Position numbers and translations under genes: made by a program
Shown here: positions 8,227 to 57,700 of the stretch, in pieces
How positions within the stretch are numbered: position 1 is the stretch's first letter
Layout: each line of letters starts with the position of its first letter
The notes under the pieces: generated by a model
Seen by the model: the letters and a program-made list of their open reading frames with translations, nothing else
Databases searched by the model: none
Told to the model about the DNA's origin: nothing
Assembly (NCBI RefSeq): GCF_963675165.1
Contig: NC_087392.1
Coordinates: 451,001-515,000, forward strand
Reading direction: 5' to 3'
DNA: 64,000 nt
From: Halichondria panicea
Lineage: Eukaryota > Porifera > Demospongiae > Suberitida > Halichondriidae

Positions 8227-8368
8227 TTCAAGTTGAATTTTAATACCAGAGCTTGTAAGGTCAGAGGTCAAGCTGATTTCTCCAAATGAAGCACCCACAA
8301 AAAGTGTGCGCTTTTTAGAAACTCCAGTGCCATTACTGTAAGACACAGCTGATTTAGATCTGCAAGAA
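8227..8368. promoter_or_regulatory. Divergent PRIM2/UROD promoter
   Basis: Only 142 bp separate the preferred PRIM2 ATG (8226, minus) from the UROD ATG (8369, plus). If PRIM2 used its upstream in-frame ATG (8346) the gap would shrink to 22 bp. Two housekeeping genes therefore share one very short bidirectional control region. No TATA box was seen. Confidence 0.5.
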
Positions 8369-15200: not shown

Positions 15201-15783
15201 TGAATGCTTGGAAAGATACCTTTCAAATGGTATCATCAAAGTTCTTATTTGAGATATAAAAGTTTTTGCCCATTTAGCCATACCATGAATAATAGCCCAT
15301 GGTCCAAGGCTGAAAAATGACAAATTAAGGCCCCGACGAAATTTTGGATTGAAATATATCATTTGAAAGGTCTCTTTCTAAGCTTTCAGAAAATCATAAA
15401 AATTTTGAAATTAGATCAACGGTACTAAAGTTATGGGCGTTGGAAGATATTCAACTACCCTCCCTCCGTAATCACATAATTATCTTTGGTTTAATCAATG
15501 GTTCGGGGATTCTTTTAGCTTAAACTTCGTTGATCAAATTGCAACGATTTTTTTTTATTTTCTGCCAGCTTAAAAAGTACCTTTCAAATGGTGGCATCAA
15601 TGTTCTACAATAAATTTATGTGTTCTTTTCATCACCTTTTCCCCCTCTCTCCACTTCAGACATGTCGCAATGTGCTAGACGGAAACTCCTGTGCCCCCAA
15701 CTGCCCTGTGGAGGCGTACTCCGATACAAACGCCACCTGCCAATCATGCAATCAACAATGCCTGTCCTTTTCTGAACAAAGAT
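12233..15783 (+). other. N-terminal laminin-type region of the giant receptor
   Basis: The start (MAMKIPSNQHKAITGLLLLL) is a clear signal peptide ending near AVAQ. Exons 2-3 (12662-13313) read as a LamG/pentraxin-like beta sandwich (DLIYSFDGGEDSFVSV, GFTVTAWVQQSP, VTDGLHHIAISVYEDS, VALYLDGRL). Next comes a laminin N-terminal (domain VI) segment at ~13545-14145, with the hallmarks PTRINDGDQDTWWES and VTFRSLLPESMVLYYSTNG. Laminin-type EGF repeats follow at ~14148-14850, starting with CVCNGHSESC and CDCNNHSLSC. A short Cys-rich piece at 15660-15770 joins to the first cadherin repeat. The LamG-LamNT-EGF_Lam order is also that of usherin and suggests a basement-membrane or netrin/laminin-like contact surface. 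Binding partners are not readable from sequence. Confidence 0.8.
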
Positions 15784-33700: not shown

Positions 33701-36700
33701 GTGTTTACTACTGAACTCCTGGACAGGGAAATATTATCCTCATACGAGTTTACAATCTCAGCGACCAATCCGCTTGGAGATCCTCCCATGGTTTCCACAA
33801 CTACTATACGAGTGACGCTACAAGACGTCAATGACAACCAGCCTATTTTCAGCAGGAACACTTATAGCGGGGTAATCACCACACGCACACAAGTGGGTAC
33901 GGCAATACTTTCCGTGTCAGCTGTGGACTCCGATCTCGATGGCAACGGAGCCATTGAATACTCTCTAATAGAGCAGAGTAATTTGTTTATTGTGGATCTG
34001 TTGTCAGGAGAAGTGACTCTAATTAGTGAGATCAGTGATGCAGAGACGTTCCAACTGGTTGTGATGGCTACTGATCAAGGCAACCCTCGACTGAGCAGCA
34101 ACGCCACGGTGATTATCAGGGTCGTACCCCCAGTACAAGTGGAGTTCTCACAGGATGGAGCTGGTTTCTTATTAGCCGGGGCCTCAGCGGTACAGCAGCC
34201 TATAGGTGAGAGCAAAACTTCTGTGTTTAATCAATGGGTTTGAAGACTCTTTTAGCTGCCATAACTTGAATTCCATGGATCCAATTACAACGATTTTTGG
34301 ATTTTCAGAAACCTTAAAAAGAGACCTTTCAAATGCTGTCATCAAAGTTCATACTTAAGCGATAAAATTATTTGCCTATTTGGCCAAACCATGAATAATA
34401 GCCCATGGTCCAAAGCCGAAAAACGGCAAATTAAGACCCTAACGAAATTTTGGATCGAAACACATCATTTGAAAGGTCTTTTTCTAAGCTTTCAGAAAAT
34501 CATAAAATTTGTGACATTGGATCAACGGTACTAAAATTATGGGCATTGAAAGATGTTCATGTTTAATCAATTGGTTCAAGGACTCTTTCAGCTGCCATAA
34601 CTTGAATTCCATGGATCCAATTGCAACAAATTTTGGATTTTTCGAAACCTTAGAAAGAGACCTTTCAAATGGTGTCATCAAAGTTCATACTTAAGCGATA
34701 AAATTATTTGCCGATTTTGCCAAACCATGAATAATAGCCCATGGTCCAAAGCCGAAAAACGGCAAATTAAAACCCTAACGAAATTTTGGATCGAAACACA
34801 TCATTTGAAAGGTCTTTTTCTAAGCTTTCAGAAAATCACAAAATTTTTTACATTGGATCAACGGTACTAAAGTTATGGGCGTTGAAAGATGTTTATGTTT
34901 AATCAATGGTTCAAGGACTCTTTCAGCTGCCATAACTTGGATCCAATTGCAACAAATTTTGGATTTTTCGAAACCTTAGAAAGAGACCTTTCAAATGGTG
35001 TCATCAAAGTTCATACTTAAGCGATAAAATTATTTGCCGATTTTGCCAAACCATGAATAATAGCCCATGGTCCAAAGCCGAAAAACGGCAAATTAAGACC
35101 CTAACGAAATTTTGGATCAAAACACATCATTTGAAAGGTCTTTTTCTAAGCTTTCAGAAAATCATAAAATTTTTTACATTGGATCAACGGTACTAAAGTT
35201 ATGAGCGTTGAAAGATGTTCAACAATCCTCCCTCGTTTATTATATCTAATTGCTTTCTCTCTTATCTTGCAGGTCTGTTTGCCAACTTTCCCCTTGCTAG
35301 CGATGGAACACTAACGGCTAGGCTAGGAAATTCTACAACCCATGCCCCTTACTCCACCCACCTCCCCCCTGCCGTCAGTGTGAGGGGGGCACTACTAACT
35401 GACATAGTGTGGCATGATCTACCAGAGATACAAGTGGTGGTACAAGTATCCGATGCAAGTGGTGATGTTCATTGCACACCAACGCAAGTCGCTGTTCGAG
35501 TTCTACCCGATTCTGTCCTAGCAACGATTGCCGATACTACGCCTCAGATTACCTGCACCTCCTCACCAACCACAGGCCTGTGTGAGGCCACTCTCCCTCT
35601 CCCAGACGTCTGGTTCACCTCCTCACTCAGTACCCGCTCTGTGTCTGTTGATATTCGCCTTCTGGACTCGTTAGACACACCCACAATTATCGGCAGTGTG
35701 ATTGTTACTCCTCAACCCCCTCTGAACTTTTTCAACAATGTTGCCGTAGTATTGCCATCACGACCATTGTCCCCTGCCCAATTGTTTACGGCTCCATTGT
35801 ACGCACATGCTAGCTACCCTGTGTCCACATTAAGTGTGAGATGTGCTTGTGATGGATTGTCTATCGAGAATTTGGAAATTAATGAAGCAGTGTGGATATC
35901 TGAAGTACGACCATTACAGTACCAAAGTGGACAGGAAGTGGGTGTGGTCATAATACTTCGAGACCCAGAGTCAATATCAGCTGATACTGTCGTCCAACCA
36001 CAATTGATTTTGTCTTTTCAAATGCGAGTGTTAATGTCAGCTGTACCTGGAAGCGTGGCGACCATAAATTGTACGACACTATATCTTGGAAATGTGTTTA
36101 ATGAGAAGATACAGCCTCAAGGTCATGTGACACCCACCCCCTCTCTCATTATTGATTCCAATACAACGAACTCTCCGACAGTTGGTGAAGTGAGAATTGC
36201 TCAAAATATACCCAAAGCATTGTTTTCGTTCGCGGACCAAGCACAAATAGTTAACACCGCTGTGTTTAGTGGAAGTACATCAAATATTCGCATCAACCAT
36301 CTTGTAGCAATGTCTTTCGGAGGTTTGGTCCTAGCGAGCAATATTAATTGTCAATGGCGCTCCCCTGCATTCACTATCACCCCCCAGTGTGATCAGATCG
36401 TTATCAATGGCTCGGAAACGTCAGCAGCTGACAATGAACTTATCACAACTGAATATCAAGGATTGACTTCATCTCTCACCCTTCGTGTGTGGTTCCCCTC
36501 TGCAGATGTATCTCTAGAAAGCCTCCCGTCAACTCTGAGTCCCGTCCTAGGCTGGCTGGCCCCCAACTCTACTGGGCAATGCTCTCAACGCTACCAGAGG
36601 GGGGTGCTCCAAGCCAACGCCCACTACTCGTACAGCCCCTCCTCTCCTGTCTTCACTGTGTCCATTCTACCACTGATATCACGTCATTTGGTCTCCTCTG

Positions 36701-39700
36701 ATCTGTCAGTTGTGTCTGTGGGAGGTGATGGATTGCTGACTGCTCTGTCTACAGGATCTAGTATAATCTCCGCTGGGGATAGTGTTGGACCAGTTGTTGT
36801 TACAGTAACGGACGAAGCTGTACAAGTAGCTGCACTGGATGTCACGGTGTTTAGTGGCCTGACTATCAGCCTACCCCCCTCTCCGTATCCAATCGGATCT
36901 ACTCAACTAGGATCTGTCGTAATTGAGCAAGAATTCAATTCTGTGTCTTCTCCTGTACTTGTTGCCATGTTAGCAGCTGCCTCTGACGGCTCTGTGATGT
37001 CCCTGACGGAGGCGGAAGCAATACGCTTGGTCAGCCTCGACGAGACAGTGGTGCAATCAAACAATGGTGCTCTGGCACTGGTTGGAATGGGCAGCGGAGA
37101 GTTGATACGAGTTGATTGGTTATCTGTTTGTACTGGAAATATAATCGCCTCAGGACGTGGACTAATCGATGCTCGAGTACCCGATCCGATTGGTTTTGAT
37201 CTGAGCCTCTCCTCGTCGTTAGTAACATACCCTGAGGACATGGCAACCGTAGGGGGAGTCCCCACGTCATCCACCCTCACCGTCTCATTGGTTTATCCTG
37301 ACAGCTTACAGAGGGACGTAACAGAGGACCCACAAACCACCCTCACATTAACTAAAGGAGAAAACCTGGTCAGTCTGGATATTGCCAATAATATAATCAA
37401 TATTATACCAATTAACCAAAACATGTTAGTAGGAGAAGTTACGATTACTATCGGTTTTGGTCCAATATCGAAAAACATTTCAATCACTGTTGTTGTCTAT
37501 CAAGGAGTGCGTATACTCTCCACCCCTTTCCCCGCCTACTCTGGCTCCAGCTCCGTCTCGAAAACCACCCTCTTCAGAATTGAACAAACTAATCTCTACC
37601 AGTCTGCATTGCTGCAGCTTGATGCGATATTATCTGATGGTTCTGCTGTTAACTCACCTCTTGCCTTGTTTGACACCACCTCCCCTCAACTCTCACTCAG
37701 CGGAAATGTTGTGAGCGCCTCTCAAGCTGGCACTTATGAGGTCAGAGGTCAACTGGGACCTGACGATGCTGTTATTCAATTGAACGTATCTGACAATACT
37801 GTTTTTGTGACATCGTTTCTACAATTCTCCTCTATGGTAGATAATGACACATTTAGTGGTACTGTCGGAGCTACTGCCTCCCTCAGCCTCGATGTTCAAT
37901 TCAGCGATTCTACCATTTTCAATAATTTTTTACCTGTCCTTGCCGAATCTGTTTCAGATATAATCTCCTTGACTACAGACACACCTGGAGCCATTACCAT
38001 TGACTCCACATCGGCTACTCTGTTTCTTCTTAACAATCACCACTCATTGGTGACAGTTACAGTTACTAAGCGACCAAACAACGAACCTCAAGCACAAGTG
38101 AGCTTTGCTTGCAATCTAGTACCAGCTGTAGGCGATGTCGACCTTGGAGCTATCAATGGAATACCACTTCCCAGTTTAACTCAAGGTTCGATTCTCACTG
38201 TTCCTGTACACATCAATGCCGGAGCTCAGCGGCTGGTTAACTTCAGTCTAGCACTGGTGTATGATAATGATCGATTGAGTCTTTCTAGTGTGGATACAGT
38301 TTGGCCAGGTGGTAGTCTGCAACACTCCGATACTCCAGCGGCAGGTCTGCTCACTCTTACAGGCTCACATTCGACCGGCATATCTGGACTGGTTCATGTG
38401 GGCACGCTTAAGTTTGACACCCTCGCTAGTGGCATGGCAACAATTGAGGGATTGGTGTTGCAGCTGACTGATGACCAAGGACTCGATATTGGCAATGGAG
38501 GTACTAGACAGTTTATTGCTGGACGCGGGAGTGTGGAGATTTTGCCTGGTATTAATAAGAGAAGTATTCACACCAGAGGAAGAAGAAACGTCGTTTGTAG
38601 CACTGCTCTACCTTGTGAGTCATGCCCCTCAATCAGAGAAAGGGGAGACACGAACGGAGATTGTATATTTAATAGTCTGGACCCTCTCTTTATGTTGAGC
38701 TATTTTGCCGAGGATATATTTGAGTTTCAATTACCCTCAGGCATTTCGCTGAATTCCTCACTAATATCTGAGCAGCTGGAACAGTTTGATGCTGACCTAA
38801 ATACAGCTGTGGACCCGCAGGATATCTACTTCCTCCACCAAATCCAAACAGGCCTGCTAAACTTCCTGACTGATGTGAGTATACTTCCCATTCAAGACAA
38901 TCCTTCTTGTACACTGGCAATCAACTGTACGCTAACAAACCATTCGCAAAGCAGCACACAGGTTTTATTTGATCTCTCTCTGCCGTTTGATGCTACCTTC
39001 GCAAGACAGCAAGTGTTTGAACAGTCTGTGTACATACGAGGAGCTCCTGTGAGTGGAGGCAACAAAGGTTTAGTGTTGCAAGGAGGACTGGTTGAAGCTG
39101 TTGAACTGGAACCTGGTGTGTACGGTATTGAACTACGAACTAACTTAACGCTAACGGACATTGGAGTGAGTGTGATACAAGTTACGTCTGAACATGGACT
39201 TGGAACGAACCATGCCAGAACAAGAGCAATGTTTGGTCATCCGGATCCCCCTCACGCCTATCCCAACATGCTGGATGTATCTCTATCAGTGTTCTCTGGT
39301 GATACAAGAATCATCGCTAGCAATGGCTACTCTCCCTTCACCTCTTTCAGCAATACATTCACGACAACCGCCTGTCAGCAACCACCAGAGCCGCCAGTTT
39401 TCAACCAAACCTTCTACTCGACTTCCGTTCCCGAGAACACTCCGCAAGGCACACCCATTCTCACAGTGCTTGCACGAAGCAACAGCCCATTCGCGGCCAC
39501 TTACAGTATAGCCTCAGGCAATGCAGGCGGAGTGTTCAGTATCGACCAGACCTCAGGTGTTTTATCAGTGATTGATGTGCTAGACTACGAGACAAGGATC
39601 TCCTATATGCTGGAAATCTTAGCCACTGATCCAGCTACTGGTTTCACGTCTACAGCCAGTGCAGACATCCTACTGATCGATATCAATGATAATCGCCCGG

Positions 39701-42700
39701 TGTTTACTGAATTTGTAACTGAAATAACTCTCGAAGATAATACACCTGTTAACAGTTTGGTTACTGTGGTAATAGCCGAGGATACCGACAGTGAAGTAAG
39801 TGGTGAAGTCCGATACGATATCCATAGTGATGGAGACACTTTTGCTATCAATGCTGAGTTAGGTGTAGTCACAGTTGCACGTGTTTTGAACTTTGATGTC
39901 CAAAGTAATTACATTGTAATTATAACGGCGAACGACCAGGGACTCCCCCCTCTCTCGTCCAATCTAACAGTGAACATAACGATTCTTCCCTCCGACCCAA
40001 CAGTGCTCGAGTTTGAGGAGCCATTTGTCATGACTACAATCCCAGAGAACTCATCGAATGGAACGACGGTGCTCGAAGTGGTGGCCTTCCCTGTTTCTGG
40101 GGAGACTGATGGTACTGAAGTGGTGGAGTATTTTATAGACGCTACTGTCCCCGTGCCATTTGCTGTTGATTCTGAGACGGGTGTGATATCGGTGGCTGGT
40201 GAGTTGGATAGAGAAACTGTTGACTCGTATCAATTTATAGTGCGAGGAGTGTTGGTGAACGATGTTAGAGCCGTGCCAGCACAAACTGCCATCTTTGTAA
40301 CTGTCTCTGATGTGAATGATAATCGACCACTGTTTGAACAAGACTCCTATCAGGCAAATCTCCGTGAGAATGAACCCTCAGGCACACTACAGCTGACTCT
40401 TAGAGCTATAGACGTTGATCAAGGGCAGAATGCCAATATCAGCTACTCGTTATTGCAACCCTCCGATATCATCGCCGTGGAAAGCATAAGTGGGGTGCTC
40501 ACTAACACACGGCCAGTGGACTATGAGCTGACTCAGCAGGTGGTGGTTATTGTGCTAGCAACGGATGCTGGAACTCCTGCTCTATCTGCTGAGATCAATG
40601 TTACCATAACAATTGTTGATGAAAATGATAATCGACCTACGATACATTTGTCCAGCCAACAAGAATTCCTCCGGGAGAATGTTACTATAGGAACAGCAGT
40701 GGCCCAAGCTAACGCTACAGACTTGGACCTTGCAGACAGTATATTATTCAGTTTACTAATGGCTGATACTACTGGAGGAAGAGTACCAAGTATTGACTTC
40801 ATCATCGATGAATATACCGGACAAATAACCACTTCAGCTTCTCTAGACTATGAGATGGTATTGTTCTACGAACTAGTGGTCATGGCAACTGATAACGGAG
40901 GACTGAGTTCAGAGGCTGTACTATTGGTGAACATAACTGATGTGAATGATAACTCACCCACTTTTGCACAGAACAACTTTAATCTATCTGTCCGTGAAGA
41001 TACTGCAATAGGAGCTACTCTATTTGTGCTGGATACTACTGACAACGATTCACCCTCAAACTCTGAAACTGTCTATACCTTAATCACCAGTGATCCATTT
41101 GTATCTACACTGTTCAATGTAAGCGCTGCAGGGGAACTGACACTTAGCTCCCCTCTAGACTACGAGACACAGGCAAGCTATGTATTAACAGTGAGAGCCT
41201 CCAACACTGCCCCAGGGGCTGCCTCCAGCACTGCAAATATCACAATCATGGTAATCGATGTCAACGAATTTGCACCAGTCTTTACACAAATGATGTACAA
41301 TGCAACAATTGAGGAAGAAGCACAATCTGGAGTGTTTGTAGTGCAAGCCTCAGCTACTGATCAAGATGGAACAGCTGCAATCACATACTCCATTAATCTA
41401 CAAGAGTTTCTAGTCGTTGCCAACGGAAGCATTTTCACCACACAGCCACTGGACAGAGAAAATATAAGTCTGTATGAGATAACAGTGACAGCCAGTGATA
41501 ATAACATTCCTGGACGAAATGCATCAAGTGTTGTTTTGGTCTATCTCTCTGATATCAACGACAACCCCCCATCACTTAGCTCCCCCACAGAGTTGACCAT
41601 CTCTGAAACTATGAGTGTAGGTACAGAGGTACTAAAACTGACTGCTATGGACCCTGATGATGGATTAAATGGAGAGATTGGAAGCTTTACCTTGCTCACT
41701 TTATCTGATAGCTTCAACTTAACTCTCAGCGGAAGCCTTGTAATTACTATGCAATTGGATGCCGTTATTGTACCACAAAATATTCTATTAATACAAGTGA
41801 ACGATCTGGGAGCTCCTCCTCTCTCCTCTACAACCTCGCTAACAGTTAATGTTGAGCCTTCCCTTGCACCAATGTTCACTCAAGCACGATACACGGCTTC
41901 TATAGCGGAGAACAACGAACCAAATACATTCCTGCTACAAGTTCAGGCAACGTCCAGACATCAAATGGTTACCATTGTCGGCTACTTTCTCAGTCCTGAT
42001 TCCATTCCACTGGCTGGTGTGTTTGCAGTTGACGAAAACACTGGGAACGTAACTGTGCTTGAATCATTGGACCGTGAAGCACGTGATTCGTACTCTCTAA
42101 CTATAATAGTTGAAGCTTTGTTCAATGGAACTATTCTAACGGCCGCTGCTCCACTCAATGTTACCGTTGTAGATGTGAATGATAATCCCCCTCTCTTTGA
42201 CCAGCAACAAAATGTTGTGTTTGTACCAGAGACAGTAAGAGCTGACTCTGCAATCATCATGCTTCAAGCTAGTGATAATGACACAGGTGGCAATGCTCAC
42301 ATTGAATACACCATAGCAACTGGTAACGAAGAGAATCTGTTTAGAATTGAAGCGAATGGAACTATTTTTGCAACCACTTATCTTCTTGGAAGAGTTGGCA
42401 ATTATACACTAAGTGTTTTAGCCACAAATCCTGTTGAAGTCGGAGCTCTCAACTCCACAGCAGAAGTTCTGATTGCTATTCAACCTGTTAACACTTTCAC
42501 ACCTCAGTTCTCACAGCCAGCATATATTGTTAATATATCCGAGAGCAGTAACGTTGGAGCTTTGCTGGGGATCCTGGTAGCCATGGACGCTGACGAGGGA
42601 ACAGCTGGAGATATTACCTACAGAATCCAGTCTGACGGTAGCAGTGGACGTTTTACCATTAACTCGACCTCTGGTGAACTCTTCCTCAGCGATACAGTGG

Positions 42701-45700
42701 ATTACGAGCTCCAAACCACCTTTAACCTCAACGTTACTGCCACAGACGCTGGCACACCTCCTTTTTCATCAGTGGTTTTGGTGACAATCGAAGTCCAAGA
42801 TGTTAATGATCAGCGGCCAATCTTCACATCTCCACTTTTTGTTTCGGAGGTGGATGAGGGATTACAAGCTGGCGCTGTGGTCACTATCCTCACATACAAC
42901 GATGAGGACTCTCCACCAAATGCACAGGTGGTTTTCAATGTTCCATCAGACGTTGCCTCTCTCTTTGCAATCTCCATTAACGGTACAGTGCAAACATTGG
43001 CACCTCTGGATCGAGAAAATGTACCTAGCTATACATTTACGGTGACTGCTGTTAACGAAGGGGGCGGAGTAACTCTCACTGGAACCACCACCCTACAAAT
43101 CACTGTGGAGGACGTCAATGATAACAACCCACTGCTGAGTCAGCGTATGTACGCTCGTGTCCTCCAAGCACCTGTCTCTGCTAATACATCACTTTTAACT
43201 GTGCAAGCTTCGGATGCTGATGCCCCAGGGCCCAACTCTCAACTCTCATTCTCATTGGTCAATTCTAGTGGCGTATTTGCTATTGGTACAACAACAGGAA
43301 CGATATCAATTATCAGTGAAATTAAAAACGCTGGAAATTTCTCGTTTGCAATTGAGGTGACTGATCAAGGCCAACCACCCCTTAGTAGCAATGCTACTGT
43401 CATGGTAACGGTACTACCAGCTGATGACTTAACTGCAGGAAGAGAAAGAGACTTTGTGTTTACAGCTGATCGTGGAATTCATCTCGTTGGAGCTTCCGCT
43501 GAAGTTATGGTGGGTGTGTACAACCATCAGTATGGATACGCTATTGGTAGGAATGTGTTTGAGAGTAGACGAGTGAGTGTTGGTCTAGGCCCTCTGTCAG
43601 CTACCCAGACAGTGTCCCCTTCCCGACGGCCTGCCGTAAGTGTGGCTGCCATTCTTGTCAACACTTTTGTCTGGCATGATAGCCCTAGTGTACAACTGGT
43701 CGTACAAGTAAGAGACGAAGCCGGTAGCGTACATACTGCAGGCACCTCCGTATTTGGTATGGCCACCCATCCATCTCTTGGCCCATCGCAGCAGAGCAAC
43801 TGCTCCACAAGATCGTCTGATGGCACTTGTATGATATCTGTACCTATACCTTTAAACTGGTTCAGCAGTAGCGAGGTTGTTAATGTACAGTATGGACTCT
43901 CCAGTACAACTTTGCAAACTGCAGGAAGGGTAGAAATACAGCCACAAATTTTATTCACGTCCTCTGATAACATCTACGTCTACATGGAGATGCCATTCCA
44001 AGATCTCTTCAGAAGAGACCGTTTCTCTGTGACTGTGTATGGACAGGCTGGCTCTAAAGCAGTTGGTTCTTTCACCATATCCGTGATAGGTTCCAGTGAC
44101 ATTGTTCTGACTAGTTTGACTGTAGATGGCTCAGTGTGGCAAGCAGAGACTGGAGTGAGTGGTGATGGAAGTAGGACAATAATAGCAGTCAGAGCTGATC
44201 AAACGATAGTCCCTCCATCTGGTCGAGTTGTTTTGTTCACGATTAATGCACAAGTTTCAGGGAGCAGCACATTGGATACTCTACTTACCAATGCTATGAT
44301 GTGTACAGTAACAGATTTGAGTGATTTTGATAGAATGAGAGTACTGCCACCGCCTGGAGAGACTGCTCAACTATCGATGACGTTGTCACGAAATGGAATC
44401 ACTACTTCAGGTGCAGTGTATGTAGCTGCTGATCGAACTGTAGGCCTGTTGCCTTATACGGAGTCATCAGAACTCATCAATACTGCTTTGCTCAATAGAG
44501 AACCAGTGATTAGTCCTCTAACAGTCTTGGAGGTTAGGCTAACTGGTAATGTGTTATCGTCCACCACTCCCCTCTTGTGTGAGACTGCCAACCCGTCTGT
44601 CGTCTCGGTGAGTACAGATTGCGCCAGTGTCATGGTAACTCAGGACAACACTCAAGCATCTACTAGTGTGGAGATTTCTATCACTCAAGGAACATTGTCT
44701 GCCTCCACCCCCATACGTGTGTGGATACCTCAAACAGCACTCAGGGCCTCACTATCTGATACCATTCTCAACAGAATACCTGGTCTGGCTACTAGTACTG
44801 AGGCATGCTCTCCCATCTACCAAACTGCACACCTCACTGTTTTTGCCGATTTCACCGACTCTCAAGAAATTATACAAAACATTGACATCACTGATATGAT
44901 ATCCAGTCTTGTGACCACATCTGATTCTACTATTCTATCTGCTAATGAAAGGACAGTGAGTGGTATTTCTGCAGGTATTGCTGAGCTGCAATACCAATCG
45001 CCATCACAGCCATCAGGTAGAGAGTTTACTATTAAGGTGAATGTAACTGATGCAGCGGTGGAAGTATTAGGATTGGACGTTCAAGTGCTGACTCTATTGA
45101 CTGCTGATGGATTGAATAATATTGATAGACTATCGACAACATCGCTCACTCTAACTACTGAACAGGTGTTTGACTTTGAAGGCACTCAGGGAGTTGTTAT
45201 TTCAACTGCTGTTTTTGCTGATGGTACAAGATCTCTACTCAATCAAAGCTCAGTAACCTACCAATCCCTCGACTCAGACATTATTTCTGTTTCTGGGTCT
45301 ACAGTGACTGCATTGGCCTCTGGAGAAGGGGACCTCATACGAGCAATATGGACACAACCACAAGACTGCGGCCTGGAACCGATAGCAACGGGAATAGGTA
45401 TTGTACGAGTAACCATTCCACAACCTGTTCGTATTGATGTTATTGCACAGACAGTTTTGACTAGAGCTGGAAGTATAGCCGAGTCTATAAATGTACCTAC
45501 AGCTACGAGTGTATCTATCACAGCTGTGTACAGTGATGGTCGGAGTCAAGATCTCTCTAATGATAACCGGACTCGATACATTGTACCCTCCGACCTTATA
45601 TTGGTGAGAAGTGATGATGTCATACTATCCGTAAACAGCGAAGCAACTCCTGGAAACTATGTAATACAAATCTCATTCGCTCAATTTCCAAGCCTGGGGC

Positions 45701-48700
45701 AAAGTGTGACAATCAGCGTTGTTGAACTGGAAGATATTGTTTTGTCAGCCACCCCCTTTCCGATCTACCCTGGATCTAGCAACACGTTTATAACCCAGCT
45801 CCAAATAATTGCTGCCACTGGTGTTAGACAAAAGGCATTAGTTGCAGCTAATGGAATTCTGAGCAATAGCGAAATAAGGAGTATATCATTCCATCCTGAA
45901 TTGACATTTGAGATCACCGAGGATCAGAATTTACAGTCACGCATTGATCGATCTGCCTCAGGCAATGTACTAACCGTACCATCCGTGTCACAACTTGACA
46001 GTGTTATCAGTATATCTGCAATGCTAGGACGAGTTGATTCGTCTACTCCCCTGCAATTAACCATCTCATCAAATGAAGTTGACATATCTGTAATTAATAT
46101 TGAGAACTTTCCCAGCTTCACGTTCAATGGAATAGCCGACTCAGCACAACACCAAGTAGTGTTCACAGCTATATTTCAAGATGGTACCCAGTATGTCAAT
46201 CTGTTTCGAGACAACAGCCTTCCTAACCTTGTCACCTTCGATGCTCCGTCCTCTGCAGTCGATATTGATCGTCTTACTGGAGTTTCCACGCTTAGAAGGA
46301 ACTTGCCAACCACAGCAACTATCACTGTCGAGGCTATCAACAATTTGATTGAGTCGAGTATCAATTTTTTCACCAACCTTGACCCAGACATAGGAGACGT
46401 TGACCTTGGGGAACTCACAGGTCCACCCCTCCCCCCCATAACAATGGGACAAACGTTTACTGTTCCTGTTAGAGTCAATTCTGGTTCAACCATACTTGGC
46501 TCTATTGAACTGGACATTGCTTTTGACCCGTCTACAATTCGTGCTGTGTCAGCTATTGCAGGACCTGACTGGCCAGCTGGTGGTAATTTTGTTCCTACCT
46601 TAAACGACCCACTAGAAATAGTTTCATTGGGTGGAACACTGGTAGGAGGAGCTCCTGTTTCTGGCCTCTCCCATCTTGCTGACGTCACGTTCGAAGTGGT
46701 GGGAACAGGTACTACTGATGTGTCAGGGACGGTGGTCACATTAGCCGATGTGGGAACTCTTGGAGCTCCAGCTGAGAACATAGGTACTGTACCACGGCCA
46801 TTCATTGCTGGGAACGTTCAGATCCAACTGAATGGTGGTGTAGGAAAACGAGATATTTCCTACCAAACAAGAAATGTCCAAACGAGGCGAGTAAAGAGAC
46901 AGACTGCTTGCTCTGATGATTCTCCGAGAGAAACTGGTGATCTTGATGGGAATTGTGTTTTTGATGTGAGAGATGGAGCCTTTTTGCAACAATACATACT
47001 CCAATCACTAACCACAGGAACACCTCCAGCCCTCCCCGCTAATAGAGCTATGTTCCTTGACATAGATGCAAATGGTAGAGTGGATGTCAATGACGTGGTA
47101 TTCATGCTGAGAGTTAACTTCCGATTGCTGCGATTCTTTCTCAATCCAAAGTTTGATGCTGTTGACGATTCTGAAAGCTGTCAACTCACATTCAATGTAT
47201 CTTTATTGCAGGGAGGAGACTCTCCAGCAAGCAGCTCAACTACTTCACTAGTTATTGATATTGCCCACTCAGACTCTGACTTCCAAGACGAATTTGATGC
47301 TTCAAATTTTACCACAGGTTTTCTCTTACCCACACCCAAAGGGATGGGGCTGCATGGAGGTCTTGTACTGGCTGCTTATCTTGGTGATGGAGTGTATGGT
47401 TTCACAATGAACACAGCTATAAGCAAAACACTAATTGGTTTGTCTCTTATTCAAGTAATATTTGATAACAATAATGACACCTCTGCAGCGAGAACTGCAG
47501 CCTTGTTCTCACAGTCTGGCCCTCGCTATGGTAACCTTGATGTCACACTCTCACTACGTCAACAAAGTGTACCTATATCCACTCAACTTGGCTACTCCCC
47601 CCTCTACTTGTTTGATAGCGTACAGACGACTGAAGTGTGTCTCTTTGAAAAACAACCACTCAGATTCATCAACAGTACCTACTCTGCTAGCATCAATGAG
47701 AGTGTCCTAGTTGGCACTGAAGTGCTGGCCCTGTCTGCAATTTCAACAAGACCAGACGCTGCAATAACCTATTCCATCAACAATAACTCATTTCCATTTT
47801 CTATAAACCTCGTGTCTGGAGTTGTTACGCTCTCACAACCATTGGACTTTGAGACTCAGCAAATGTACCAGCTCACAATCACAGCAACTGAAGTTGGAGG
47901 CTTTTACACTGCAACTGCAGAGCTTGTGATACTGGTGATCAATGTGAACGATCTCCCACCCATTATCAATGATACTGCCCCAGTGCAAGTAGTGGCTACT
48001 CAGAGCAATGGAGACATAGCTCGAGTGATTGCTGTTGACCCTGATGGTCTTGACGAATTGCAGTTTGAACTCACTACATCTCTCAACCAGTTTAAAGTTA
48101 ACCAATCAACAGGAGTTGTTAGTATCGCTTCTTCATTGATGGACCTTGCAAATACGATAGTTGATTTGAACATTTCTGTTTCTGACAGCCTATTCACAAA
48201 TTCTACTTCTGTTACAGTTGATGTTTTCCTACCTACATTTACAGAACAATCAGTGGTGGTTTCCATTCAAGAAAATGCAATAGTTGGAACTGCAGTGGTG
48301 AATATATCTATTGAGAATGCAAGAGATTTAGAATTTGTGTTGGTGTCTGCAGATCCTTCATTTACTGTCAGCAATGATGGGGTAGTGACTGTTGATGCTG
48401 GATTGGATTTTGAGGCTCAATCTACCCATATCTTCAATATTACAGCTACCAGTACTTCACCACCTGTTACGTTAATTACAACACTGAATATATCCTTAAT
48501 CGATATCAACGATAATCCACCCACCTATTCTGATGCTGTTATCAATATCACTATCAACTCCAGTACCCTCATAGGAGAACGCATTGCTAGTGTCATAGCA
48601 ACTGATGCCGACTCTGGTGTGAATGCAGACATCTCGTACACTTTACAAACTCCAACCTCACTGTTCACACTCCATCGAACAACTGGTGATTTGTTCTTAG

Positions 48701-51700
48701 CTGGAACTCTACTAGGTGTACAGTCATCACTGGAAATCATAGTGATAGCTACTGATGGTGGAGCTATGCCTCTCAATGGTAGTGCTCGAATTATGATTGA
48801 GATTGTTTCCCCTTTGTTTGTCGACCTTCCTATTGCCCCAATCTTTGTTGCCTCTAATGGCCTTGCAATTTTATCCGATACACAGATGAGAAACAACAAT
48901 AGTTTTGCTCAACAGTTTAGCAAATTACACAATTCAAAGTCTGAAGAGTTATCAGCTACTCTGTCTGGTATGAGGATTACTGCCTCGGTGTCAAGCACAT
49001 TGCAAAATGGTGTTACAGCTACTGCGGCTTTGCTTCAACCATCAACGGTGGTGTACCAAGAGTCACCCACCATCTCAGTGGCATTCCAAGTCAGGGACTC
49101 TGATCATCTCACAACTGTTGTTAATACGATTGCTTCTTTTGATGTGGTTCGTGATGCTTTGAGGAACAGCTCTGACTCGTGTGTGCCTGATGACCGTGGA
49201 GTGTGTGTGGCTGTATTCACTGTACCTCAGAATTGGTTCACTCAAGCTACTACTGTGATCATAGTTGAGCCTCAATTGAATGGACAGCCAGTTGACTTGA
49301 ATGTAATGTTTATCACTTTACAACCTTCTCCATCGAACTCATTAGACTTTCAAAATGCTATAATTACTACATTGCCATCGCGAGATATCGTATCCGGACA
49401 AACTATTACAATGGACATATCTGCCTACATCAGTAATGCAGTGGTTGGATTCGCTGTCTCATTCCAACTACACCCATCTCTCGAGGTAATGGATGTTATC
49501 ATTAATAACACTCAGTGGGGTGTGCAAACAGCCTCAGGCAATAATACCCTCGGAATCGTAGCGATTGTGGCCACACCTGTTGAACAATTCACCGTCCGTT
49601 CACCTGTTTATTTATTTTCCGTTCAATTGAGAGTGGTTACTAGTAACCCTGCAACCATTCCTATATCCGGGACAATACACTCTCTGAGCGATGCTATCGA
49701 AGGCAGCGTGATTCTTGACTCAACCAACAGCTCCACGGCTCCACTGTTGTTGACTGGTAGAGACGGTGGTGTGAGTGAGATTGGAACTGTTAATGTTGTC
49801 CCTGATACATTGCAAGCTCTGTTTCCATACACTGAGCAGCCTGAGATCCTGAATACAGCTGCTCTGGATGGTATTGTATTATCTATACAAGTGTATTTGT
49901 TGGGTGCATATTCATCTGGAGAGATCCTACCATACACAGCTGACATCACCTGCTCTAGCAATACGTCTGTCGTCAATATTGACTCGCTTTGCTCATCTCT
50001 GCTACTCAATGGAGGAGAAACTGGAGGTGCTGACAGTGTATTAATGATGTTCAATGTATCGGACATTACTGCATCCATGCCAGTGCGTGTTTACTACCCT
50101 CAGGGAAGCTTAAGACTGGTTGCAAGTGACACAACACTCAATCGTATACAGTACACTCTTGCTGATACCTGTACATCATACCAGCAGGCATCTTTGTCAG
50201 TTTTTGCTGATTTTAAAGCAGGTGAACGTGCCCTCACAAATGTCTCCCTCGCTCACTTGTTACCACCGCCTTACCTTGAAGACGATGAAAGCACTGTGCT
50301 ACAACTGGATGGTCATATGATGTATGGTCGGTCTTCTGGTTCAACTCGTGTGTGTGTTGGAAGCACTACAGTTTGCATTGAAATTACTGTCTCCACGGAA
50401 GTCGTGAAGTTGGTTAATGTGATTAGTTTGTTAATTGTTGAACTCAGCCTTACTGCTAACTCTACTGTTGTTCCTAACTCGGTAGAAACAGCTCTGTTTG
50501 ATATCAGATCACAACTGCAGTTTGAGCAGGAGATTGGTACACTACTAGTGGCAGTACAATACACAGATGGAACCTACTCTCCTGTTGACATCAGCGATGT
50601 GACTTTAAATCAACCTGTAGATACGTCTGTGTACACTATTCAAACTGGCCAAGTAACAGCGAGAGGAGGTTCAGGCTTGGCTGAGCTGTTTTATCGATGG
50701 ACTCCGCTAGCTGGAACATGTGGCTTAACTGTCAGTGAAACCATCTCTGTAACAGCAGACCTCCCACAGCCTGTATCAGTACGCACAACTACTCTCACCC
50801 TTACCATTGCAACTATAGAGAGTGATGCTTCACTAGCTGGACTACCAACTACTCTAAGTATTACAATGGAACTGGTATACTCTGACAATCGCACTCTGAA
50901 TATTACTGGTGATTCTCGCCTTAGCTACATGCCCTCAAGCAATCTAATAGCCATCTCCAGCATTGGTGAGGTCACAGCCACTGGACAAGGCGCTGGTGTG
51001 GGTGTGGCTATTGTTGTAGTTATGTTCACGAACGCCCAATCAAACCTAACCATTGAACTAAGTGTGGAGGTGGTGGCTGCAACTGGTTTGGAGATATCTG
51101 CCACCCCATATCCAAGTTATCCTGGCTCAGAAAATAATCAGATATCAACTCTTTCTCCTCTCGAAGACACTGGTATCTGGCAGAGGGGGGTGGTTGCACT
51201 TCGTCTCAGTCTAACCAATGGGCAGACTCTCGATGTTACTTCACTTCCCCGTGCAGTAATAACAGTGATTGGAATAACTATCTCTAATGAGTTTGTTTTA
51301 AGTGTGAATGGTGCTGGAGGTGTACTTATAGATGCAATGTTTGGTTCTCTGGTCACTGATATACCACGACAGCTTACTGTTAGCAGCACACCTATTACAG
51401 TTACTAACATTTCACTGGAGCCCCTACCCAACAATGTTCTGGTGGGTATAGCTGACATCTCTGCAATACAAGTATACTCAACTATCACATTCTCTGATGG
51501 TACAATGTTCATCAACTATCCTGCACCCAGCCTACCCTCAGGTCTGGTTGTCTATAGCACTGACAGCAATGCTATTGCAGTTAACCAGTCAGGAATGATA
51601 ACTCCACTGCAGAACTCTATGTCTTTAGTAACTCTAACGGCTACTAGTAAAGATGAAAGTGTCAGCTCCAGTATTCAATTCACTGTTGACCTTGTTCCTA

Positions 51701-54700
51701 ATATAGGTGACGTTGACCTTGTATTATCATCATTTGGACCGTTCACTGTGGACAATCTGTTGAGTATTTCTATATTTATCAACACCGGGGGTCGTAATCT
51801 GGGGGTGATCGAGTTGTCGCTACTGTATGACAGCCAGGTACTAAGCCCTGTGAGTGCTGAACTTGGATCTGATTGGACGAGTGGAATATTTGCAGTTTAT
51901 CTCTTTGACAGCGCTGGTATCGTGAGAATGGGTGGTGTACTCACAGTTGAAGGTGCTGCCACTGTTGACCTGCATTTACTTACTGTACACTTCAATGTTA
52001 TTGGACCATCTGCTTTTGGCGAGTCTTACCTACGCGGTGAATTGGTTACTCTCACAGAGTTTGGTGCTCAAGGTATTACAATCGGGGCACCTACACCTCG
52101 CCCGTTTGTAGCTGGAGATACAAGATTCTTTGTTGATAGCACTCGTAAAAGATCGGCTATGCAATCTTCAAGCACACCTCGAACCAGGAGAGCCGTTGAT
52201 GAATGCCTTACCTTCAACTGTAGCTGCTCACGATCCACTCAAGGCGATATAGATGGTAACTGTTTGTTTGATCTGAGCGACGTCTCCTTTGCTCTTCGCT
52301 ACCTCTCACAGTCACTAATTGAACTGAATGGAGATGATTCGATATCTTCTGTTCTGGATCAGAACAGAGATGATGCTGCAGACACAACTGATGTTTATTT
52401 CCTTTTCCGAGCCGCTCTTGGTCTGACTCATTTCCTGCAGGATGTTCAAATCACTCCTGTTCAAGATGCTCTCTCAGCATGCCTTTTCACAGTGAATGTG
52501 CAACTATCATCCTCTGGACAAACGGATGTGCTTATCGACCTAGCCTTGGACCCTCAATTGGCCCCTATAAACAACATCCCCTCAACAGGCAGTATACTCA
52601 CTACAGACAAAGGCTCTGACTTGTCCGGCGCATTATACTCCACACAATTGGTTAATGGTTCGTATATTCTCCAGCTGGGAGCAGAGTTTGTTTCATCTAT
52701 GGTCGGTGTATCTGTTGTTCTGGTTACATACGACTCGAGACGTCAAACAAGTGCTGACAGGACAACACAGTTCTTTGGACCACCTCCCCCAACCTTCGGA
52801 GCCTTAAATATTACATTAACTCAACCACCAGTTCGTCTCTCTGCTTTAAATGGTTACTCTTCATTGTTGACAGTCTCTAATAGTTTGGAGTCTTCTCAAT
52901 GCAACAATAATCCTGTACTAGGCTTACAGCTCAACGCAACATTCTTGTCTCCATTCCAAGCGGTATTGGATTGGACGCTACTCAATCGCAGAACAGGACT
53001 AAACTTTACTGATCAGCTAAGGATACAAGTTCAAGAGTGCAGTATTTCTCAAGCAGGAGTTGCTGATAATATCTGTCCCGAGTATTTGATCTCCCCAGTG
53101 CAAGCAAACACACAGCACACTTTACCATCAACACCATTCACTGAGTATGCTTTCAGAGTGCTTGCCCCAAATGATGTGCAAACAAACATGCTCCAAGTCC
53201 GCTCCCCTGAGGCCTCTCCTGAGGGCCTGTCTGCTCCCACCTACGAACATATCGCTGGTGGTGTGGTCCTGAGATGGTCTGTACCCTCTCAACCAAATGG
53301 AATCATTACTCACTACACTCTAACACGCAACTCTCAAGTAGTCTTCAACGAATCTAGTTTAATTGTTACCCTTCATTCAGCCATCACTGTAGCAACGAAT
53401 GTCTCGCTAACGGCCTACAACTCAGCTGGTTTCACCACAAGCCCCCCTGCAGTCATACCCCCCACTGATATTGAGGGTAGCACACTGAGCCCAGGATTGC
53501 CTGTGGCCATTACTGATGCTATCATAGTATGTGTATTGTTGACTGTGTGTGTGATAGTAATACTGTTGGTGCTACTAGCCGTGGGAATGAAATGTAACAG
53601 GAGGTGGGGCAAGGACAAACCACCACCCTTTATCTCTCTGGACTTTGATGCCGAGAAGATTGGTGTGGTGAGTTACAATTGTTGGAGCTATAATTATGCA
53701 TGTGCATTTTCACCATTCGTAATACCATAATGTGCAAAAGGAATATACAATTCATAATTAGCATGTACAGGGTAATTAAATTAAAATTAATATGCAGGAA
53801 TGTCTGACTAATTATAAGTACAATGTTGCTATAACAAATGCTTGTAGGAGGAGATTCCACTTAAGGATGACAGTGTGAATGTGCTGCTCTCATTGGATGC
53901 ACAGAGAGGACAACACTTCTCTCAAAAGTTCACGCAGGAAGACTCCCAAGCATTCTGGCATCAGGATGAAAAAGGCATTGTGAGTTTGCACACACACACA
54001 CAACACCCCCCACACACCCACACCCACACACACTAAATAGGTTCAATACCATGCACACACACACACAGGAACTGTTTCCTCCGCACTACGAGTCCTCGGC
54101 TGATGACTCGAGTGGTGATGAGGGCTTCACTACAGAGCTGGACGAGCAATGGCGTCTTGGAGAGACAGCTCCTGAGGATGGAGAGTTTGCTGAGCTGAGT
54201 GACCTCTGGGACGATGCACTCAACGAGAGCAAGGGGCACTCCACAAAGAAAAAGTGAGTTGTATATATAGGCACAGTAAGATTTTAATAAAATAAACTTG
54301 TAAACTATCTTTCTAAGAATTCTGTGGATCCAATTTCAACGATTTTATGATTTTCTAAAAGCTTAGAATGAGACCTTTCAAATGGTGTCATCAAAGTTAA
54401 TATTTGAGCGATAAAAGTATTTGCCGATTTGGCCACACCATGAATAATAGCCCATGGTCCAAAGCCGAAAAATGACAAATTATGGCACCTTATCAATTTT
54501 GGATTGAAACACATTATTTGAAAGGTCTCTTTCTAAGCTTTCAGAAAATCCGAACATTTTTGACATTGGATCAACGGTACTAAAGTTATGGCCGTTTATA
54601 GATGTTCAACTACAACCCCTTGTTCAATAGGAAAAAGCAAGCTATGTGTGGTTCACTTATCCCCATCTCTCTAGGTTACATTCTAGCTTGATTTGGTATG

Positions 54701-57700
54701 CTGACTTTAATAATACTGTTTGGTTTCTCTGTAGGTCGAACAGGCCTTCCTCCTCAAGCAAGCGGAGGTCAGGTATCTTTAAGCGATTCTCCAGACACCA
54801 ACAGGAGGACCAGCTGCAGTTGTTGGAGGAGGGTGGGTCACAGCAATCTGTTGGAGAGCCTGACCTTCTCTCCGATCATGAGGTACGCATGTACACACGG
54901 TCATGTGGTTTGTGGTTGAGCATGTAGCCGTTAGAAAGCTCGATAGAATGTGAGTAACTGTACATTTATGCATCTCTTGCTCATATAATTATAGATGGAG
55001 TATTTTCAAAGTCAGATCACCAGCTACAATCAAGAGCAAAGAAGAAGATCCTCCGTAATCGAGACTAGCAAGAAAAGATTAAACTTTGGAGTAAGTCTTC
55101 ACATCATCATAATATACCGATTATGTATTTAATTTTTGTTTTGAATCGGCTGTTAATTGTTCATAACCCCCTACCCTCTAGGGTACCACGTCAATGACGA
55201 ATGAGCAGGTGGAGCGTTATCCTGTCGATCTCCCAGATGAATCTGCTGAGTCAGCGTCAGAGGTTGCCAAACGTCTGATGAGTACTGTACAAGTTGGAGA
55301 CTACCGACGACAATACCGCTCGCTAATGGCCGTCAAGCCAGACAGTGAGGCCTCCCAATCAAGGTATACACATGTATGTGTGTGTCTATATTATATATAT
55401 ATGTATGTGTATGTATGTCTGTGTGTGTGTGTGTCTGTGTCTGTGTGGGGATGGGATGGAGTTGTGTGGGTGTGTGTGGGTGGGTGTGTGTGTGGGTGTG
55501 TTTGTTTGTGTGATGGGATGAATTTGATCCAAACAAAATGTTCAATATACAGATTGTCAGTCAATGTGCCCAAGAATCGCTATGGCAATGTGTCTGCAGC
55601 TGACCAGACCAGAGTCACCCTGACTGATGCTACCCCCATGGTGAGAATGTGTGCACTGTAATGTCATACTTTGCTCATAATTGTACCATAACTTCAGCTA
55701 ATAAATGCTCAACTAGAGTTAGTTTGTTACTATACAAGTACTTGAATGTGTATGTTTTCCTGCACACACTAATCACTCTGTATTGACTGAGTGACTGAAT
55801 TCTTTCCATGCCTTTGCAGGTTAGAGGCTCTGACTACATCAATGCCAACTTTTTGAATGGATTCGACCGACCCAGTGCCTATATAGCCACTCAGGTTAGC
55901 TCTTGAAATCTTTTTTAGGCATAATTGTTTTGAGCTACTGCATGCAATATGGCTCTATTTGTTTTCACAGTCAATCAATTATCATTCTCAGTGTGACTGT
56001 GTGTGGTTTGTTTGCTAACAACCCAAAACCAAATGATATCCGATAGACACAATCTATACTATAGATCTAATTGCTTGTCTACGGGCCATTGCCCTGCCCC
56101 CACCACAGCGTGTTTGTCCCCTTCTCTACGTACACTGAGAGCTAACTAGTCGTAATCATAATTGATTGAGTTATTTTGTTTGTCATTTTAGAATGTCAAT
56201 ACAACGTCAATTAGAGGGAGTATGGATTCTCGTATGAAGTTTCTCAATTTATTGTTATTCACTAAATTATTGGATAAATGGATATGTTTCCACGGCATCC
56301 CAGAAAGTTTTCAGACTGTTTAAGTTGTTGTCTTCCCCCTCAAGCTAGTCTACCCAAATTGTGTGTGTGTGGTCAGCATTCAAATTGCTATCACAACCAT
56401 TGGATTCTTGCATGCATTACAGATATAGACAGTGTTTCATGTGGCATGTTGCTAGGAGATTAATTACACTGCAGGGTCCGCTGCCAAACACAACTGTGGA
56501 TTTTTGGAAAATGGTCTTGCAACAAAAGACAGAAGTGATTGTCATGACAACAGGCATCACTGAGAAAGGACGTAAAAAGTGTGAAAAGTACTGGCCTGAT
56601 CAAGAGATGTCCCAGAGGCATGGCCCCGTCACGGTGCACTGCACCAGTCAAACGTATGCGCTGACCAATACAGTGTCACTGTATGTTAGTATAATGATAG
56701 CTTACGTACATAACTTGTTTATACTTAATTAGCTTGTTCATATACATACTGTTACTGTACACTGTTTCCCTTAATTATATAATTAAACTACCCTCCCCCC
56801 CCCTCTTGTATCTGCAGGAGGTACCCTGACTACACAGTCTCACAGCTGACCCTGAGGATGGAGGAAGAGGCTGGCAAACGACACATTACTCACTATAACT
56901 ACCATTCGTGGCCCGACTTCGGCAATCCTCAACCCACACAGTTCATTGACATGGTGACCAAGATTCATTCGCCAAAGGATCGTCCCATTGTGGTACATTG
57001 CAGCGCTGGTCTGGGCCGTAGTGGAGTATTTATCACCGTCCACACAGCTTTGGAGACGCAGGCCGCAAAGAGAAAAGTAGACATAGAGAAAATTGTTTAC
57101 AATCTCCGCAAGCAACGAGAGGGGATGGTCCAGACACCGGATCAGTACCGATTTTGCTACGAGGCCACGGCAGACGCTCTATCAGCTCAACAGAGAACAA
57201 GAACCAAATCAGAGCCTGCAGCGGCATTCATCCCTCCCACTATTCGACCTCTTTCCACACCGACTGTAATTGAACCAGCTACATTGACTCGTGAACACAG
57301 ACAAAAGAGAGAAGCCTCAATACCTCCCCCCTCACCATCTCTACCACCCTACACTGAAGAAATGCAAAAGGAAGAAACGGCCCACCCTAGGATTGAAACC
57401 CCACCCCCTCCAGAGTCATCGCCACCTCCTCCGATAAGTCAGCAAGAGACACCAATCAAAGTGGCCATCACACCTGACGTGATAGTCACAGCACCATCTA
57501 TGGAGAATATTTCGGACCACGAACTTGTACAGAGGAAACTGGACGATCTTGCGGAGAAGAGGGCCACTGAGACCACCCCCTCCAGACCAGCCTCTGACAG
57601 AAACTCTGGTGTGAGCTTAAGAAAACAAGAAACAAATGCTCCAAAACAAATTGAAACTACAAAAGAACCACTAAAGCGCAACAAGCCTGCGCCTAAAGAG

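What the first reader, a model, noticed from the sequence alone, without database searches (positions are those of the whole stretch)
38131..52440. Furin site placed between a cohesin-like and a dockerin-like domain three times over
In all three modules (38131-38870, 46391-47150, 51702-52440) the order is cohesin-like domain, basic linker with a canonical R-x-K/R-R (R-G-R-R 38575-38586, R-V-K-R 46888-46899, R-T-R-R 52180-52191), Cys-rich spacer, dockerin-like double Ca loop. Position, not just presence, is conserved while the linker sequences differ. Cohesin-dockerin pairing is Ca-dependent and very tight in bacterial cellulosomes. Inference: the receptor is cut at up to three sites during secretion and the pieces are rejoined non-covalently, in cis or to other molecules. 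This would give a Ca-sensitive, separable adhesion receptor, comparable in logic to Notch S1 or GAIN-domain heterodimers but by a different device.
Basis: partly seen in the sequence, partly recalled or inferred. Interest (0 to 1): 0.9.

Follow-up and report, generated by a model that had tools for sequence, protein, structure and literature searches.

The report
Furin-cut cohesin–dockerin hinge in animal receptor
A giant adhesion receptor of an early-branching animal, probably a sponge, carries likely cutting sites for a processing enzyme exactly between two domains that in bacteria grip each other tightly, three times over, so the receptor may be cut and yet stay clasped together.

Summary
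The window carries what looks like one giant single-pass receptor gene (about 12233-58729, +): signal peptide, laminin-EGF, dozens of cadherins, three TMEM132-type modules, FN3-like stretch, TM and a tyrosine phosphatase, fitting a lefftyrin-type receptor phosphatase (family recalled). Each module ends cohesin, basic linker, Cys spacer, double Ca-loop dockerin. The only three R-x-[KR]-R motifs in the 12,180 residues of the two giant frames lie in the three linkers, which are also the three most basic stretches. One search found seven such modules in the genome: a mucin-like single-module gene on contig C15 has the same two-site linker; a coherin-like paralogue has the cassette three times with no site in any linker. 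So 4 of 7 linkers, in 2 of 3 genes, carry sites. Profile searches support cohesin and dockerin, fold searches support cohesin. Cutting is likely; rejoining by cohesin-dockerin in cis is plausible but unproven, as the structure models are too poor to judge docking. LAR phosphatases are furin-cut, noncovalent two-piece receptors, so the logic has precedent; the cohesin-dockerin device appears new.

The parts
12233..12547 (+). likely first exon with a signal peptide (MAMKIPSNQHKAITGLLLLLLMSAVAQ...); end is the frame's stop, exon end not known
   Evidence: frame translation; signal peptide judged by eye
12821..14873 (+). LamG-like (16.8 bits, below cut-off), F5/8C-like (20.8 bits, below cut-off) and laminin-EGF (over cut-off) exons
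   Evidence: Pfam
15534..33617 (+). 18-kb cadherin exon (6027-codon frame; 15 and 23 cadherin stretches in its two halves); no R-x-[KR]-R in the 6009 aa examined
33668..34240 (+). bridging exon with 2 cadherin stretches and the likely start of module 1
35212..53730 (+). 18.5-kb open frame with three TMEM132/cohesin/dockerin modules, cadherins, FN3-like stretch (20.1 bits, below cut-off) and TM
38128..38547 (+). module 1 cohesin
   Evidence: Pfam weak; seven-row profile; fold hits
38554..38565 (+). module 1 first dibasic site NKR|S
38575..38586 (+). module 1 RGRR
38644..38868 (+). module 1 dockerin, two Ca loops
   Evidence: no Pfam hit
38869..39375 (+). module 1 post-dockerin domain with conserved Cys pair
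46390..46836 (+). module 2 cohesin
   Evidence: PF00963 over cut-off; fold hits
46843..46854 (+). module 2 first dibasic site GKR|D
46888..46899 (+). module 2 RVKR
46936..47142 (+). module 2 dockerin, two Ca loops
   Evidence: PF00404 17.6 bits, below the 22.9 cut-off; seven-row profile
47143..47640 (+). module 2 post-dockerin domain with conserved Cys pair
51703..52140 (+). module 3 cohesin
   Evidence: Pfam weak; seven-row profile; not modelled
52144..52155 (+). module 3 first dibasic site RKR|S
52180..52191 (+). module 3 RTRR
52243..52437 (+). module 3 dockerin, two Ca loops
   Evidence: no Pfam hit
52438..52902 (+). module 3 post-dockerin domain with conserved Cys pair
53503..53592 (+). 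transmembrane segment
   Evidence: hydrophobic stretch; judged by eye
55799..58729 (+). tyrosine-phosphatase exons (HCSAGLGRSG) and tail
   Evidence: PF00102 E 5.6e-5, 1.1e-21 and 2e-30 in three frames; a fourth frame upstream, 55182-55658, gave no family

Best explanation
The gene encodes a lefftyrin-type receptor tyrosine phosphatase whose ectodomain is cut during secretion by a furin-like convertase in the linker between cohesin and dockerin of each of its three TMEM132-type modules, perhaps at two sites per linker, which would free a peptide of 8, 16 or 13 residues. The pieces remain together noncovalently, most likely because each dockerin, once loaded with calcium, holds the cohesin just upstream. 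The result would be a receptor of up to four clasped segments that can part when calcium falls or force rises, and so can unload the phosphatase tail. Shown here: the domains, the sites, their non-chance placement, the same two-site linker in another gene, and phosphatase exons downstream on the same strand. Inferred: exon joining, cutting, cis-clasping, calcium control, and any effect on signalling.
For: The only R-x-[KR]-R motifs of the 12,180 aa are in the three linkers, which hold the only 40-residue windows with 8 K+R, mean 1.3. K159, R160, R173 and R176 (module 2 numbering) are invariant in the three window modules, although these are only 32-34% identical. A third gene (C15) with one module has NRRRR|S and RDRR|S in the same linker and no other such motif in its 3964-aa frame. 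20 convertase P-domain matches in the genome. Cohesin and dockerin profiles and cohesin fold hits. No Cys in the three aligned cohesins, so no disulfide from inside the cohesin can span the cut. LAR phosphatases: furin-like cut, subunits noncovalently bound (passages of PMC8711739).
Against: The paralogue with the same cassette has no site in 3 of 3 linkers. The models give no confident dockerin and no interface. Dockerin is under the Pfam cut-off or silent in all three window modules. The first dibasic site lacks the P4 arginine in all three window modules, so it is weak for furin. Each module should, by TMEM132 homology, hold another cohesin-like domain upstream, which could be the true partner (PMC6030884; not tested here). 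No orthologue from another species could be examined; no protein data.
Confidence: 0.45

Rival explanations
1. The linkers are cut, but to free cohesin and dockerin from each other so that they pair in trans, between molecules or with other cohesins, linking giant receptors into a calcium-dependent mesh.
For: Cohesins bind dockerins to glue the cellulosome complex together (stated in PMC6030884). The paralogue keeps the cassette without sites and could supply partners. The dockerin residues just before the last Asp of each loop differ between modules, which would suit different partners; that these positions set specificity is recalled.
Against: Tethering in the same chain favours cis pairing; no partner was tested; the models give no interface.
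Confidence: 0.25
2. The basic linkers are not cut; they are exposed hinges that bind acidic glycans or simply space the two domains.
For: The linkers are the most basic stretches of a K/R-poor protein. No cleavage data exist. One paralogue does without sites.
Against: R-x-[KR]-R is present in 4 of 4 basic linkers; given their own composition the chance is about 0.0014 for the three window linkers, though 0.27 for the C15 linker alone. A second basic site sits at the cohesin end each time.
Confidence: 0.2
3. The cuts serve to shed large ectodomain pieces as soluble matrix or signal; nothing holds them.
For: No cysteine in the aligned cohesins. Cleaved LAR ectodomains are found in culture media (PMC8711739 passages).
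Against: It leaves the cohesin and two-loop dockerin on either side of the cut without a role; release of the LAR ectodomain is described through a further, alpha-secretase cut.
Confidence: 0.1

Closest known systems
Lefftyrins, coherins and hedglings (cadherin families of choanoflagellates and sponges)
   Same: Cadherin proteins that hold the five TMEM132 domains in the same order (PMC6030884, parts 1-2 of 3 read); the tyrosine-phosphatase tail fits a lefftyrin as I recall Nichols et al. 2012 (paper not held)
   Different: Convertase sites between cohesin and dockerin are not mentioned in the passages I could read
LAR-type receptor tyrosine phosphatases
   Same: Single-pass adhesion phosphatase with a basic furin-type site, subunits held noncovalently (PMC8711739 passages)
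   Different: There one furin-type cut at the C-terminal end of the ectodomain; here up to three deep in the ectodomain, each between two domains of a known binding pair
Bacterial cellulosome cohesin-dockerin pairs
   Same: Both domain types recognised by profile, cohesin also by fold
   Different: There the partners usually lie on different proteins and build an enzyme complex (recalled); here both lie in one animal receptor with a likely cutting site between them
TMEM132 family
   Same: PF16070 over cut-off in all three modules
   Different: [quoted passage not shown] TMEM132 proteins there have no cadherins
Notch S1 and GAIN-domain receptors (recalled)
   Same: Cut in the secretory path, pieces stay together
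   Different: Held by other domains; no cohesin or dockerin

Membership tests
Lefftyrin-type cadherin receptor phosphatase | cadherin repeats, EGF-, LamG- and FN3-type domains, TM and intracellular tyrosine phosphatase (definition recalled from Nichols 2012, not read) | tested here: inconclusive
   Cadherin, EGF_laminin and Y_phosphatase over cut-off; fn3 (20.1 bits) and LamG (16.8 bits) below cut-off; exon joining not proven by transcripts
TMEM132-type module | conserved region, cohesin, three BIG domains in order | tested here: inconclusive
   Fourth domain over cut-off in 3 of 3 modules; fifth 24.1 and 16.6 bits in modules 2 and 3, sixth and second weak in module 3 only, all these below cut-off
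Cohesin domain | PF00963 match or cohesin fold | tested here: met
   Over cut-off in module 2 and paralogue modules 2 and 3; below it in modules 1 and 3; fold hits for modules 1 and 2; C15 and paralogue module 1 have no Pfam cohesin hit
Dockerin type I | two Ca loops each followed by a helix | tested here: met
   Loop pattern twice in 3 of 3 window modules; seven-row profile E 6e-9; helices after the loops in both models but at pLDDT under 50; Pfam below cut-off or silent in the window, over it in paralogue module 1
Cohesin-dockerin pair | high-affinity Ca-dependent binding | not testable with these tools
   Models too poor
Furin-processed receptor | R-x-[KR]-R in the chain between folded domains | tested here: met
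   3 of 3 window linkers; exposure not tested
Furin-processed receptor | cleavage observed in cells | not testable with these tools
   no proteomic or immunoblot data on hand

The most novel reading that the evidence does not exclude
An animal receptor phosphatase is cut by a convertase at up to three places and held together by bacterial-type cohesin-dockerin clasps in cis, each a calcium- and force-sensitive latch; the same cut-and-clasp linker is used by a second, mucin-like receptor, while a coherin-like paralogue keeps the clasp uncut.
Probability: 0.35. Interest if true: 0.85.

Novelty: new variant of a known kind. Interest (0 to 1): 0.62.

Why it matters
If true, a domain pair famous from cellulosomes serves in an animal as a mechanical and calcium-sensitive fastener inside a cut adhesion receptor that ends in a tyrosine phosphatase. 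It would give the cohesins and dockerins of choanoflagellate and sponge cadherins, for which I found no tested role, a directly testable function, and would show furin-type many-piece receptors arising by another device near the base of animals.

Tried and rejected
AlphaFold2 of modules 2 and 1 with three-row window-only alignments: too poor to judge docking. Trees of the seven modules: none of the inner branches of three trees reached the tool's mark for firm support, so gain or loss of the sites cannot be placed. Orthologues in other species: no eukaryote collection is on hand, and the tool holds no relatives of this genome. Papers: Nichols 2012 and Peer 2009 not held. No held paper has dockerin, furin and cadherin together. 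Other searches gave, in the rows listed, nothing on convertase sites in these cadherins: 15 listed of 16; 20 of 99; 30 of 344; 12 of 89; 12 of 1,133; 12 of 13; 1 of 1; most of these papers were seen as listings only, so this is no proof of absence. Passages read in PMC5097364 and PMC4054682 name these families; the latter says some hedglings carry 'Furin' domains, which I take as the furin-like Cys-rich domain and not a cutting site. A direct disulfide holding the pieces was considered and thought unlikely, as the aligned cohesins lack Cys; links through other domains, such as Cys 966 just before module 1's cohesin, are not excluded. Dockerin-like hits on C1, C3, C4 and C12 (11 of the 14 rows) were weak and not followed. 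A genome search with the TMEM132 part of module 2 gave 4 matches, the window's three and one of the paralogue. The Cys tally has one exception: C15 has a single Cys there.
Full report
What is there. The window lies in a 131-Mb genome with Wnt genes (10 matches), so an animal. Cadherins with this make-up are described from choanoflagellates and sponges (PMC6030884, parts 1 and 2 of 3 read), so a sponge is likely, by inference. On the + strand, exons from about 12233 (signal peptide, by eye) to 58729 appear to form one gene: LamG-like and F5/8C-like stretches below cut-off and laminin-EGF domains over it; 15 and 23 cadherin stretches in the two halves of one 18-kb exon; a bridging exon with 2 more; then an 18.5-kb open frame (35212-53730) with three TMEM132-type modules, 13 and 4 cadherin stretches between them, an FN3-like stretch (20.1 bits, below cut-off) and a transmembrane segment; then phosphatase frames (PF00102 with E 5.6e-5, 1.1e-21 and 2e-30). 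No transcript was seen, so the joining of exons is inferred. The phosphatase tail fits a lefftyrin as I recall that family; the defining paper was not held.

The finding itself. In each of the three modules the order is cohesin, linker, Cys spacer, two-loop dockerin, post-dockerin domain with a Cys pair that recurs in all seven modules. R-x-[KR]-R is found 3 times in the 6171-aa frame and 0 times in the 6009-aa upstream frame; all three are in the linkers. Shuffles expect 0.24 and 0.11; the highest count among 500 shuffles of the main frame was also 3, so number alone is weak. Position is strong: 0 of 20,000 composition draws filled all three linkers, 72 filled any. The linkers hold the only 40-aa windows with 8 K+R in 12,180 aa, mean 1.3. 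Given this basic composition, the motif would arise within a linker with p 0.13, 0.09 and 0.12. A further dibasic site follows the last cohesin strand in each (NKR|S, GKR|D, RKR|S); it lacks the arginine at P4 and so is weak for furin itself (motif rule recalled). K159, R160, R173 and R176 are invariant among the three, although the modules are only 32-34% identical. If both sites were cut, peptides of 8, 16 and 13 residues would leave.

Relatives in the same genome. A protein search with module 2 finds seven such modules (a lower bound by the tool's own note): three in the window, three in a paralogue 0.4 Mb away (C16:935264 to 911421, minus, 7948-aa frame) and one in a mucin-like single-module receptor on C15 (3964-aa frame). 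The C15 linker reads NRRRR|S and RDRR|S, the only R-x-[KR]-R of that frame. C15 has no Pfam hit for cohesin or dockerin; its place in the family rests on the protein match (E 2.6e-18, 29% identity over residues 1-310 of 428) and the alignment. The paralogue has no R-x-[KR]-R in 7948 aa and 1, 0 and 3 K+R in its linkers. So 4 of 7 modules, in 2 of 3 genes, carry the sites. The modules are so far apart that the trees give no firm fork, so one origin with loss and repeated gain cannot be told apart.

Are they cohesin and dockerin? Cohesin passes the Pfam cut-off in window module 2 and paralogue modules 2 and 3, not in the other four. The seven-row profile hits solved cohesins, best E 2e-6. Foldseek of the module 2 and module 1 models puts cohesins at the top (E 3.5e-6 and 8e-8; 47 and 50 of the 50 rows listed are cohesins or cellulosome-type modules), though the models are poor overall. 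Dockerin passes Pfam in paralogue module 1 (26.9 bits) and, with its neighbours in the frame counted, paralogue module 3; in the window it is below cut-off (module 2) or silent (modules 1 and 3). The seven-row profile hits 30 solved sequences at E <= 0.01, best 6e-9; 24 are named as dockerins or cellulosome-type enzymes and scaffoldins, 6 bear other names. A profile of seven rows speaks for the family and not for each row. The Ca-loop pattern, written after the loops were seen, matches twice in each window module and in paralogue modules 1 and 3, once in paralogue module 2 (its second loop has one extra residue), once in C15 (second loop degenerate), and once in the paralogue outside any dockerin.

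How it may work. A convertase cut in the linker, with the two neighbours forming a calcium-dependent pair, would leave a receptor in clasped segments. No cysteine lies in the three aligned window cohesins, though one (residue 966) lies two residues before that of module 1. Cys of spacer and dockerin are even in number in 6 of 7 modules (none in paralogue module 3; C15, with one, is the exception), so they may bond with each other on the C-terminal side of the cut. A disulfide from inside the cohesin across the cut is therefore excluded and other bridges are not. LAR phosphatases show that a furin-cut phosphatase with noncovalent subunits is workable (passages of PMC8711739). 20 matches to the convertase P domain are in this genome. 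What is not shown: cutting, binding, which cohesin the dockerin prefers (each module should by TMEM132 homology hold a further cohesin-like domain upstream, not tested), and function.

Verdict. It is best filed as a new variant: a lefftyrin-type receptor phosphatase with likely convertase sites between cohesin and dockerin.

Noticed in passing
L022-L024, G000:C15:5736095-5724204 minus: A mucin-like receptor with long Ser/Thr-rich repeats, one TMEM132/cohesin/dockerin-like module with two convertase-type sites, TM and short tail.
   Followed up: partly
L004-L007, G000:C16:935264-911421 minus and following exons: Coherin-like paralogue with three cohesin-dockerin modules without sites, a fourth TMEM132-type stretch that by eye seems to lack them, and a tail with two NPLY motifs.
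   Followed up: partly
G000:C16:5067576-5138191 and G000:C4:2391010-2538682: Clusters of proprotein-convertase P-domain matches, suggesting local expansion.
   Followed up: no
34265-35196: A repeated unit of about 336 bases, three copies by eye, in the intron between the bridging exon and the second giant exon.
   Followed up: no
8342-9901: Frames on the + strand that read like uroporphyrinogen decarboxylase (by eye).
   Followed up: no
60747-61949 minus: FoxO-like exon (Forkhead and FOXO-TAD over cut-off) downstream of the receptor.
   Followed up: no
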